From Thermoanaerobaculia bacterium (lineage in GTDB: Bacteria > Acidobacteriota > Thermoanaerobaculia > Thermoanaerobaculales > Sulfomarinibacteraceae): DNA of 52,187 bases. A program made the translations under genes and the position numbers. The stretch is taken from the NCBI GenBank assembly GCA_027061805.1, contig JAMOWA010000024.1, positions 1 to 52,187 of the forward strand, in the 5' to 3' direction. Shown here piece after piece: positions 36,168-52,187 of the stretch (position 1 is its first letter; each line of letters begins with the position of its first letter). A model generated the notes under the pieces. The model saw only the letters and a program-made list of their open reading frames with translations. It had not been told where the DNA came from and searched no databases.

Positions 36168-36645
36168 GGAGCTGAGGAGGCAGGGGCGCTGGGGCGTACG
36201 GGGGCACGGGCACGGGCACGGTCACGGCCAGGGGCACGGCCACGGCCACGGCCACGGTCAGGGTCACGGACGGGGTCGGGGTCGGGGTCCGGGCCGCGGA
36301 CACCTCCGCTCCGACTGGAAGCGCCTCATTCGTTTCACGTTTCACCTTTCACGTTTCACGAGGCCCAGGGGACGGATAGCGGCGACGGGGACACGGTCAC
36401 GGTCACGGCCACGGACGGGGTCGGGGTCACGGTCACGGCCACGGACGGGGTCGGGGTCGGGGTCAGGGCCACGGACACCTCCGCTCCGACTGGAGGCGCC
36501 TCGTTCGTTTCACGTTTCACCTTTCACGTTTCACGAACGGGCGGGGGGGCGGCGCGCCACACCCCCGCTCCCCGCCGGACCGACGGGCAACCTTCAGCTC
36601 TTCACTTCTCCACTTCCCGACCTCCCCACCACGCCGCGTGTCCGG
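36168..36645. repeat. Repeat island B: hexamer arrays and a 175-bp tandem duplication
   Basis: 36185-36297 is almost wholly 6-bp units (GGGCAC, GGTCAC, GGCCAC, GGTCGG). 36298-36361 (GGACACCTCCGCTCCGACTG onward) recurs at 36473-36536 with two substitutions, each copy preceded by a hexamer array and ending in the 31-bp block of four TTTCACG/C units (36331-36361 and 36506-36536). Runs GGGGTC at 36272-36293 and 36447-36468 fit the G-quadruplex pattern. 36590-36622 is a pyrimidine-rich complement of the 7-8-bp purine array. No protein-coding gene is visible. Confidence 0.8.
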
Positions 36646-46383: not shown

Positions 46384-46939
46384 GACGCCTGCCCCCGGCG
46401 GCACGGCGAGGCCCCAGGATCCCGGGCATGGGGGCTGCTCCCTTCCATCGCCCCAGTATACGGAGCCCCGCCTCCGGCCGTCGCAGAGCGCCCCGGACGG
46501 ACGAGGCCGGGGGCATGGAGGCGGCCGCCTTTCGCGGTCACCGCCCACCGGCGCCGACGCCGACGCCGACGCCGTCCCTGACCCTGACACGGTCACGGTC
46601 ACCGACACGGACAAGGGCACGGTCGCGGTCGCGGACACGGACCCTGACGCCGCCGTTCTGGGCCGCCGCCCCCTGACGCCGCCGATCCCGGCCGCCGTCC
46701 CCGACCGTGACCCTGTCCCTGATCCCGGCCCCGTCCCCGCCACCGACACGGACAAGGGCACGGTCGCGGTCACAGACGCAGACACGGACACGGACCCTGC
46801 CGCGGCCGGCGTTCGCGGTCGCCGTCCGCCGGTACCGATGCCGCCGCCGTCCCCGAACCCGGCACGGTCACAGACGTGGACACCGACACGGCAACGGACA
46901 CGACCACGATCGTGGCTGCTCTCGTTCCCGCGCGTTGCC
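46384..46939. repeat. Repeat island C, left part: hexamer arrays in direct and inverted order
   Basis: From about 46556 the sequence is mostly 6-bp units, in both polarities (GGTCAC, GGACAC, TGACCC, CGACGC). TTTCGCGGTCACCGCCCACC (46532-46551) and TTCGCGGTCGCCGTCCGCC (46813-46831) head two similar direct copies of about 40 bp. A plus-strand frame is open throughout but codes only Thr-Asp, Val-Ala and Pro-Asp dipeptides, as expected from a 6-bp repeat, so I do not call it a gene. The moxR promoter should lie in 46384-46500 but I cannot identify it. Confidence 0.65.
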
Positions 46940-47090
46940 GGTTTCCTCCCGTTCGTTCCTGTGGTGGGGACGTAGCCCCCGGATCCGCCCGGCGTCAAGG
47001 GCACGCCGGCCTGCGGCCGGTCGCTGCGCGACCCCTGACTCCGGGCGGCCCGGGGGCTCTGGGACCACCATGAACGAACGGGAGGAAACC
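46940..47090. repeat. 151-bp palindrome P4 over the start of the four-helix-bundle gene
   Basis: GGTTTCCTCCCGTTCGTTC (46940-46958) and its exact complement (47072-47090) form 19-bp arms. Pairing continues with GGTGG against CCACC. Inside lies an 85-bp hairpin (46974-47058) with AGCCCCCGG/CCGGGGGCT ends and a GGTCGC-TGC-GCGACC apex. The right arm contains GGGAGGAAACC, the apparent ribosome binding site of the gene starting at 47091, so a folded transcript would hide it. Confidence 0.8.
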
Positions 47091-47441
47091 ATGCCCCACG
47101 CGCTCCACGAGTCACGACCCCCGGCCCTGGCGAAGGCCCTCGAGGCCGCCGGGATCGCCATCGCCCTGGCTGCCACGGTGAAGGCGCCCCTCCGGTCCCT
47201 GGCCGACCAGGTGGTGCGGGCCGCCGCGTCGGTTCCCGCCAACATCGCCGAGGGCGAGGGGCGTTCCGGGAAGGACCGGGTCTACCACTGGCGGGTGGCG
47301 TACGGCTCGGCGAGGGAGCTGGACGTCCACCTCCGGCTGCTCCTCGCGTCCGGGTCCGTGGATGCGGTACGTACGCAGCGAGCCCTCGCGCTCCTCGACG
47401 AGGTCCGCGCCATGCTGTGGCAGATGATCCAGAGGGGGTGA
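47091..47441 (+). CDS. Four-helix-bundle protein (23S rRNA intervening-sequence, IVP type)
   Basis: 116 residues from the ATG at 47091, with GGGAGGA 4-9 nt upstream; an in-frame ATG at 47070 lies inside the palindrome. VVRAAASVPANIAEGEGRSG (41-60) is the family hallmark, followed by YHWRVAYGSARELDVHLRLL. This small fold was first found in insertions within 23S rRNA genes and also occurs scattered in genomes; its job is not settled. No rRNA is near. It is the only clear gene in a 1.6-kb repeat island and is bracketed by inverted repeats. Confidence 0.88.
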   Translation: MPHALHESRPPALAKALEAAGIAIALAATVKAPLRSLADQVVRAAASVPANIAEGEGRSGKDRVYHWRVAYGSARELDVHLRLLLASGSVDAVRTQRALALLDEVRAMLWQMIQRG

Positions 47442-47457
47442 AGGGAACACGGACACG

Positions 47458-47538
47458 GTCAGGGGCACGGACAAGGGCAGGGGCATAGACACGGGCACTG
47501 TCACAGACCCTGTCCCCGTCCCTGTCCATGCCCCTGAC
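47458..47538 (+). terminator. Inverted hexamer array after the four-helix-bundle gene
   Basis: GTCAGGGGCA (47458-47467) and TGCCCCTGAC (47529-47538) are perfect arms. Between them the 6-bp units run first as GGACAA/GGGCAG and then as their complements TGTCCC/CGTCCC, so much of the segment can pair. It starts 17 nt after the stop codon and could end transcription, although no U-tract follows. Confidence 0.45.
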
Positions 47539-47718
47539 GCGGACCCTTCTCCGAGCTCCGGCGGCCGTGGCCGTGCTGGTCGCACGGCCCCGCCGTCCTC
47601 CTCCGGCGAGGAGGAGCGGTGTGGTTTGTGGAAGGAGCTCCTGCCTCGCCGGAGTGCGGGCGGGCCGCCTCCCACGATGGCGGGCCACTTCTCTGGGCGT
47701 TCTTCCCGTGCGGAGCCC

Positions 47719-47774
47719 GGTACGGCGTTTCCCTGGTGTCCGGGCCTGGAGAGCGTCACGGGAAACGCCGTACC
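47719..47774. repeat. Palindrome P5 with perfect 15-bp arms
   Basis: GGTACGGCGTTTCCC (47719-47733) and GGGAAACGCCGTACC (47760-47774) flank a 26-nt loop. Weaker pairing extends outwards to about 47670 and 47815. 47539-47718 otherwise shows only short GC-rich hairpins and no gene. Confidence 0.75.
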
Positions 47775-47876
47775 CGGCACACGCCGCCGGGCGCCACCTT
47801 CTCCGGGTGGGTGGGAGACGTCTCCACTCCCTCACGAGCAGAGGACCAGGCTCTGCACACCCCCTGTGCCCTCTTT

Positions 47877-47907
47877 CGTTTCACGTTTCACCTTTCACGT
47901 TTCACGA
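47877..47907. repeat. 31-bp block of four 7-bp units, copy 3
   Basis: Identical over 31 bp to blocks at 36331-36361 and 36506-36536: CG then TTTCACG, TTTCACC, TTTCACG, TTTCACG. With copy 2 the identity extends through AACGGGCGGG on the right. Confidence 0.85.
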
Positions 47908-51679: not shown

Positions 51680-52110
51680 GACGACCTCCAGTCCGGGCAA
51701 CGATACCACCTCCGCCGCCCACCCGCCCGGCCGGTGAGGAGGTGAGGGCGTGAGGGTGTCAGGACGTGAGGGCGGCCCCCGCCCACCCGGGGAGCAGGGG
51801 GGCAGGGGGGCAGGGGCGAGGGGGTGGGTTCCGGCACCGCGCAGGTCGAGATCAGGGTCGGGGTCGGGGCCCCGGGCAGGGACACGGGCAAGGGCACGGA
51901 CACGGACATGGTCCCGCCATCGTCCATGACCATGTCCCTGTTCTTGTCCCTGTCCCCGTCCATGATCGTGCCCCTGTTCTCATGCTCCACGGCGCCCTCG
52001 GTCCTCCACGGGAGCACGGTCAGGATCACGGGCACGGTCAGGGTCGGGGTCGGGGTCGGGGTCGAGAGCGCTCTGCCATGGTCACCACCGGGTCGTTCGG
52101 AAGGGTACGT
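51680..52110. repeat. Repeat island D: purine and hexamer arrays
   Basis: 51737-51825 is a 7-8-bp purine-rich array (GGTGAGGAGGTGAGGGCGTG, then GGGGAGCA/GGGGGGCA units), sharing a 20-mer with 201-220. 51850-51913 and 52020-52066 are plus-strand hexamer arrays; 51928-51985 holds the complement. GGACATGGTC (51904-51913) and GACCATGTCC (51928-51937) are perfect inverted arms. 51855-51876 and 52041-52061 fit a G-quadruplex pattern. No gene is seen. Confidence 0.7.
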
Positions 52111-52187
52111 AGCCTCCGGGCGTCCCGGCGTCAAGGGCAGGCCTGCGGTCGCTTCGCGACCCTATGACTCCGGGACGCCCGGAGGCT
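52111..52187. repeat. Palindrome P6, relative of the P4 core
   Basis: AGCCTCCGGGCGTCCCGG (52111-52128) and its exact complement (52170-52187) are 18-bp arms ending at the window edge. The interior CGGCGTCAAGGGCA...GGTCGCTTCGCGACC...TGACTCCGGG is shared with 46974-47058, and both copies are preceded by ACGTAG. The arms differ from those of the other copy by paired changes, which keeps the fold. Confidence 0.8.

What the first reader, a model, noticed from the sequence alone, without database searches (positions are those of the whole stretch)
46940..47441. Four-helix-bundle (IVP) gene whose ribosome site is folded into a 151-bp palindrome
The only gene in a 1.6-kb repeat island is an IVP-type protein. 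Its likely GGAGGA ribosome site sits in the right arm (47072-47090) of a 19-bp perfect inverted repeat. IVP genes are known mainly from palindrome-bounded insertions in 23S rRNA. A copy outside rRNA, again bounded by palindromes, suggests that the stem and the protein belong together: the protein could bind, mobilise or be controlled by the structure. That link is inference.
Basis: partly seen in the sequence, partly recalled or inferred. Interest (0 to 1): 0.8.

Follow-up and report, generated by a model that had tools for sequence, protein, structure and literature searches.

The report
Amplified hairpin-plus-IVP gene element
The gene with the palindrome at its start is one of about two dozen copies of a roughly 500-base self-contained unit scattered through this Acidobacteriota genome and its relatives, in which a small four-helix protein (IVP) of unknown function travels with a long DNA hairpin, which suggests that IVP genes are a kind of selfish or mobile DNA well beyond their textbook home in ribosomal RNA genes.

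Summary
The palindrome (46940-47090) and the IVP gene (47091-47441, PF05635/TIGR02436; predicted fold like Xcc0516 and Avd) are real. They are one copy of a multi-copy unit of about 500 bp. This genome (Thermoanaerobaculia MAG) has about 23 such IVP genes in four subfamilies and about 29 hairpins. The unit recurs in at least 10 related genera. The hairpins share a 22-bp outer and 27-bp inner stem (33 pairs with changes on both sides; 0/500 shuffles). The proposed RNA control is not what the covariation shows: pairs change Watson-Crick to Watson-Crick (3063 WC, 43 G-U, 108 A-C), whereas SRP RNA of the same genomes has 109 G-U and 0 A-C. This points to a DNA-level palindrome. IVP copies are under purifying selection (dN/dS 0.11-0.20). 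ORF-deleted derivatives and two islands absent from a congener suggest mobility or gain and loss; no transposition was seen. Outside this clade stand-alone IVP genes lack the hairpin but tend to sit between inverted arrays of about 7-bp period (p=7e-12 and 1e-8 against control genes). I found no report of this. Mechanism is inferred.

The parts
46938..47092 (+). Long imperfect DNA palindrome (hairpin) at the 5' end of the unit
   Evidence: Covariance-model hit 126 bits; the repeat finder I3 and I12; fold z -8.7
46940..46961 (+). Outer stem, left arm (contains CCTCC)
   Evidence: alignment A1 columns 5-25
46974..47001 (+). Inner stem, left strand (AGC...GTCAAGGG)
   Evidence: A1 columns 42-70
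47032..47058 (+). Inner stem, right strand (CCCCTGAC...GGCT)
   Evidence: A1 columns 105-132
47069..47090 (+). Outer stem, right arm; holds the conserved Shine-Dalgarno-like GGAGG (47081-47085) and an in-frame ATG (47070)
   Evidence: GGAGG-N5-AT kept in 59 of 71 hairpins
47091..47441 (+). IVP (four-helix-bundle) gene, 116 aa; alternative in-frame start at 47070
   Evidence: PF05635 and TIGR02436 above cut-off; AF2 pLDDT 92.9, best PDB match 2GSC; dN/dS 0.19 among the 7 copies of its family
46548..46935 (.). Degenerate hexamer arrays (GACACG-like) upstream of the unit
   Evidence: the repeat finder D1/D2, TRF; best lag 6
47448..47538 (.). Degenerate hexamer array downstream, same orientation at first, then inverted on itself
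   Evidence: TRF and inverted repeat I2
52078..52187 (+). Second copy of the hairpin (family B2), cut by the end of the window, which is a contig end
   Evidence: Covariance-model hit 86 bits, truncated 3'

Best explanation
The thing is one copy of an amplified, probably selfish unit of about 500 bp that consists of a terminal DNA palindrome (about 150 bp) followed at once by an IVP gene and ending close to its stop codon. Shown: multi-copy, dispersed, intact and selected protein, hairpin and protein kept together, ORF-deleted derivatives that keep the hairpin, islands present in one species and absent from the same place in a congener. Inferred: the hairpin works as DNA (single-stranded hairpin, cruciform, or an end whose arms are copied from each other) and is the cis-acting site on which the IVP oligomer acts, with host replication or repair enzymes (no enzyme was identified) doing the copying. 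The unit tends to lie in short-period tandem arrays. The ribosome site in the right arm may couple expression to the state of the palindrome, but this is secondary.
For: About 23 IVP ORFs in 3.1 Mb and about 29 hairpins; hairpin in at least 10 genera of the family plus one genome of a sister family. Lineage-specific expansions: G000 families A, B and B2 and a G010 clade. dN/dS 0.11-0.20 within genomes. 33 of 52 pairs with changes on both sides, 197 such cells, 0/500 shuffles, and sharp loss when slid by one column. WC 3063, GU 43, AC 108 against SRP control WC 784, GU 109, AC 0: maintenance is Watson-Crick, i.e. DNA-like. Three hairpins with the same internal ORF deletion but different left flanks. 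Island of 1020 bp with hairpin and IVP against 84 bp at the orthologous place in G010, and 739 against 46 bp at another. Homology of family B copies stops 0-14 bp after the stop codon. Arrays end within 80 bp of the hairpin's left end in 28 of 41.
Against: No transposition was observed. No mobilising enzyme is encoded in the unit; the genome has no reverse transcriptase hit and its two Y1 transposases show no hairpin nearby on inspection. No target-site duplication or clean insertion boundary could be shown: in the congener the whole intergenic stretch differs, and in array flanks it could not be judged. The ORF-deleted copies share 160-390 bp downstream, and some family A and B2 pairs share 100-200 bp after the stop, so larger duplications contribute. 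IVP has no known catalytic site. The organism is a MAG; many copies lie at contig ends.
Confidence: 0.55

Rival explanations
1. Autoregulatory leader: the hairpin forms in the IVP mRNA, hides GGAGG and the start codon, and IVP (a relative of the RNA-complex protein Avd) or an RNase III-type cut controls translation.
For: GGAGG-N5-ATG conserved inside the arm in 59 of 71 hairpins; stable fold; Avd, a structural relative, is part of an RNA-protein complex (PDB 8ub7); 23S IVS stems are RNase III substrates (PMC4990558).
Against: Almost no G-U pairs and more A-C than G-U in the gene strand, the opposite of SRP RNA in the same genomes. ORF-less hairpins persist. Such a stem would nearly silence translation, yet the protein is under selection.
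Confidence: 0.2
2. Passive repeats: the units spread by segmental duplication and recombination within repeat-rich intergenic islands, and the arms stay complementary because imperfect palindromes are corrected by template switching; neither stem nor protein drives the spread.
For: ORF-deleted copies share downstream sequence; copies lie among other repeats and arrays; Watson-Crick-only change is what arm-to-arm copying gives.
Against: dN/dS 0.11-0.20 in every family shows that the protein matters; hairpin and gene are kept together over many genera; unit boundaries are similar in independent families.
Confidence: 0.15
3. RNA-mediated retroelement served in trans by a reverse transcriptase, or a REP-like element served by the genome's Y1 (RAYT-like) transposases.
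For: IVP resembles Avd, the accessory protein of diversity-generating retroelements (PMC10053308); two Y1 transposases exist.
Against: No reverse transcriptase found in the genome. The Y1 genes are not flanked by the hairpin on inspection. The gene strand does not evolve as RNA.
Confidence: 0.1

Closest known systems
23S rRNA intervening sequences with S23/IVP ORF (e.g. Coxiella burnetii IVS, PMC4990558)
   Same: Same protein family; [quoted passage not shown] thought selfish.
   Different: Not in an rRNA gene as far as tested; stem is wholly upstream of the ORF instead of around it; many copies per genome; Watson-Crick-only covariation.
Avd of diversity-generating retroelements (Bordetella phage; PDB 4dwl, 8ub7)
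   Same: Same four-helix fold.
   Different: No reverse transcriptase in the genome; no template/variable repeat pair was looked for.
REP/BIME elements with RAYT (Y1) transposases; MITEs
   Same: Dispersed intergenic palindromes, some without an ORF.
   Different: The protein is an IVP, not a Y1 transposase; hairpin and gene form one unit.
Heptanucleotide arrays of bacteria (GGGAATC in Xanthomonas, GGGGA(C/T)T in Nostoc, PMC4692102; TAACTGA in Beggiatoaceae, PMC4679880)
   Same: Short-period intergenic arrays, in Xanthomonas often in inverted pairs, like those found here around stand-alone IVP genes of other clades; Xanthomonas campestris also holds the IVP Xcc0516 (2GSC).
   Different: In the passages I searched neither paper mentions an IVP gene; in Thermoanaerobaculia the period is mostly 6/12/18, sometimes 13/19.

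Membership tests
IVP family (PF05635 / TIGR02436) | Profile score above curated cut-off | tested here: met
   59.1 bits vs 33.8; 66.3 bits vs 24
IVP family (PF05635 / TIGR02436) | Four-helix bundle like 2GSC / 2RLD | tested here: met
   pLDDT 92.9, four helices; Foldseek E 3e-6 to 2GSC, TM 0.82
IVP family (PF05635 / TIGR02436) | Pentameric assembly | not tested
   Only the monomer was modelled
23S rRNA intervening sequence | Lies inside a 23S rRNA gene | tested here: not met
   No Rfam hit in 20 own IVP loci; the genome's 23S gene is not in the assembly, so an additional rRNA copy cannot be excluded
23S rRNA intervening sequence | Complementary ends enclose the ORF | tested here: not met
   Both arms lie upstream of the ORF
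Diversity-generating retroelement | Reverse transcriptase of the retroelement | tested here: not met
   No PF00078 match in the genome, about 97% complete
Diversity-generating retroelement | Template repeat / variable repeat pair | not tested
   Not searched, no reverse transcriptase present
REP/RAYT or IS200/IS605 | Y1 (HUH) transposase in or next to the element | tested here: not met
   Two Y1 genes exist elsewhere, no hairpin seen beside them; action in trans not excluded
MITE-like non-autonomous derivative | Copies lacking the ORF but keeping the ends | tested here: met
   L133, L134, L148
MITE / DNA transposon | Target-site duplication | tested here: inconclusive
   Flanks are arrays or wholly different intergenic DNA
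Structured RNA leader | Compensatory change including G-U intermediates on one strand | tested here: not met
   GU 43 vs AC 108 vs WC 3063; SRP control GU 109, AC 0, WC 784

The most novel reading that the evidence does not exclude
IVP proteins are the protein part of a widespread class of selfish DNA whose recognition site or product is DNA inverted symmetry (a palindrome, or inverted arrays of about 7-bp period); 23S intervening sequences are just the copies that landed in rRNA, and many of the long-unexplained heptanucleotide arrays of bacterial genomes are their traces.
Probability: 0.3. Interest if true: 0.9.

Novelty: new variant of a known kind. Interest (0 to 1): 0.72.

Why it matters
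The function of IVP/S23 proteins has stayed unknown since they were found in split 23S rRNA genes, and the origin of heptanucleotide arrays in bacteria has stayed unexplained. A clade in which IVP genes amplify together with a clear cis-acting palindrome, and the wider tendency of stand-alone IVP genes to sit between inverted short-period arrays, give a concrete substrate to test (hairpin and array DNA) and a genome-wide assay (gain of copies and arrays).

Tried and rejected
Rfam: only chance microRNA-like hits at the window. Whole genome as file: not available. Translation from 47090 was out of frame and gave no family hit, corrected. Y1 transposases as partners: no hairpin seen at their loci. 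Reverse transcriptase: none. Viral contigs: no relative. R1 model in 99 genomes of the phylum: only own genome and one weak hit outside the family. N-terminally truncated IVP hits in G010 that recur near residue 44 are partly contig ends, so they were not used as evidence of 5' truncation; the rest showed no uniform array at the truncation point. Literature: no paper linking IVP genes with palindromes outside rRNA or with heptamer arrays in the held library; most subscription journals and bioRxiv are not held.

Full report
CHECK. The palindrome and the gene are there as described. Arms 46940-46961 / 47069-47090 enclose an inner stem (46974-47001 / 47032-47058), so the region folds as one long hairpin. 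The ORF 47091-47441 is an IVP by Pfam and NCBIfam. The AlphaFold model (pLDDT 92.9) matches Xcc0516 (2GSC), BT_0352 (2RLD) and, more weakly, Avd of diversity-generating retroelements. GGAGG lies five bases before the ATG, inside the right arm.

IT IS ONE OF MANY. A DNA search of the window's own genome gave seven further copies at 85-92% identity that include the hairpin and all or part of the gene, and many weaker ones. A protein search gave about 23 hairpin-type IVP genes in 3.1 Mb, in four families here called A (the window's), B, B2 and C. The best relatives in named public genomes are Thermoanaerobaculales/Thermoanaerobaculia MAGs (Acidobacteriota). In the same taxonomic family other genomes hold up to 18 hits, often at contig ends, as expected of repeats that break assemblies. 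A covariance model built from 28 hairpins finds about 29 hairpins in the own genome. One of them is cut by the right end of this very window (52078-52187). Three hairpins on other contigs have lost the same internal part of the ORF but keep the start and the tail of the unit.

THE HAIRPIN BELONGS TO THE GENE. In nearly all full copies from at least ten genera, and in one genome of a sister family, the hairpin ends at the IVP start. The middle of the inner stem differs almost freely between families while its partner strand follows. 33 of 52 pairs show changes on both sides and 197 cells are doubly changed; none of 500 shuffles reaches this, and sliding one strand by one column destroys it. Outside the clade the hairpin is essentially absent: in 99 genomes of the phylum only the own genome and one weak hit.

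DNA OR RNA? In 71 hairpins collected by the covariance model (which, if anything, favours G-U) there are 3063 Watson-Crick cells, 43 G-U, 108 A-C and 160 others. In the SRP RNA of the same genomes there are 784, 109, 0 and 7 (Fisher p about 1e-38, cells not independent). A gene-strand RNA helix under selection should accept G-U and reject A-C; this hairpin does neither. The complementarity is therefore most likely kept at the level of DNA, either because a DNA hairpin/cruciform or end is what matters, or because the arms are copied from one another. The mild excess of A-C would be G-U on the other strand; that leaves a weak case for a minus-strand molecule. SRP RNA is a single control.

SELECTION AND SPREAD. 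Within genomes dN/dS of the IVP genes is 0.11-0.20 with mean dS 0.3-1.05. A tree shows lineage-specific expansions (few columns, many forks unresolved). Homology of family B copies ends 0-14 bp after the stop codon and, on the left, continues only into arrays; some family A and B2 pairs share more on the right. At G014:C74 an island of 1020 bp with hairpin and IVP stands where the congener G010 has 84 bp. At G014:C322 a 739-bp island with a 5'-truncated IVP joined to a 12-bp array stands where G010 has 46 bp. These are presence/absence differences of islands; they do not show the act or direction of insertion.

ARRAYS. In 28 of 41 copies a tandem array ends within 80 bp of the hairpin's left end. 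The best left-flank period is 6, 12 or 18 in 26 of 38 and 13 or 19 in 7 of 38. Several family B copies abut locus-specific 13-bp arrays. Most family A copies have same-orientation hexamer arrays on both sides.

A WIDER PATTERN. Stand-alone IVP genes from other phyla (Rhizobiales, Chloroflexota, Thioalkalivibrio, Cyanobacteria and others) lack this hairpin and are not beside any rRNA. They were chosen only by protein similarity. Their flanks show a period of 7 (19 of 19 with positive excess on both sides), and in 30 further Acidobacteriota loci the best left lag is 7 or 14 in 19, sometimes 8. The right flank tends to be the reverse complement of the left. Against flanks of 44 other genes of the same loci: p = 7e-12 for period 7/8 and 1e-8 for inverted complementarity; 35 of 48 exceed the 95th percentile of controls for complementarity, but only 17 of 48 for periodicity. 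Their mismatches show no RNA bias either (47 G-U, 44 A-C). Some of these loci are related to each other (the Rhizobiales set), so the p values are optimistic. Heptamer arrays, including inverted pairs, are known in Xanthomonas and Nostoc (PMC4692102) and Beggiatoaceae (PMC4679880), with no IVP link in the passages searched. The IVP structure 2GSC is from Xanthomonas campestris too.

MOST LIKELY WORKING. The unit behaves like a small selfish element: a protein that is selected for in its copies, a terminal DNA palindrome as its cis-acting part, and a taste for array-rich intergenic DNA. How it is copied is not known; no reverse transcriptase is present, and the two Y1 transposases of the genome have no visible link. 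I put 0.55 on this reading, 0.2 on an RNA leader, 0.15 on passive repeats, 0.1 on service in trans by a reverse transcriptase or Y1 enzyme.

Noticed in passing
window 52078-52187: A second hairpin of the same kind (family B2) is cut by the contig end; the contig probably broke in this repeat.
   Followed up: partly
window 36331-36360, 36506-36535, 47877-47906: Three short CGTTTCA heptamer arrays; the first two flank hexamer arrays at 36205-36478 that have no hairpin hit. The same heptamer also follows or precedes IVP copies elsewhere (L018, L033, L134).
   Followed up: no
window 47540-47780: A separate repeat block with its own palindrome (47715-47733 / 47760-47778) recurs, inverted, beside the ORF-deleted hairpins such as L133 and L134.
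   Followed up: no
L226, L230-L240, L242-L248, L278-L307: Stand-alone IVP genes in many phyla tend to lie between inverted arrays with a period near 7 (sometimes 8) bp and locus-specific units.
   Followed up: partly
L016, L019, L020, L022, L133, L134, L146, L148: 13-bp arrays (about GGCRGCRGNNNNC) abut the left end of family B hairpins; the four middle bases are locus-specific.
   Followed up: partly
L252 (G014:C322), about 1620-1660: A 5'-truncated IVP gene is joined directly to a 12-bp array; a hint that arrays may form at the 5' junction.
   Followed up: partly
G000:C56 (L034, L035, and C56:7667-7984): The same genome also carries three IVP genes of the ordinary kind on one contig, without the hairpin at the two inspected.
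   Followed up: no
L055, L056: Two Y1 (RAYT-like) transposase genes in the same genome.
   Followed up: partly
L258-L262 (G010): Several IVP tails are joined to another palindromic repeat shared among the copies in G010.
   Followed up: no
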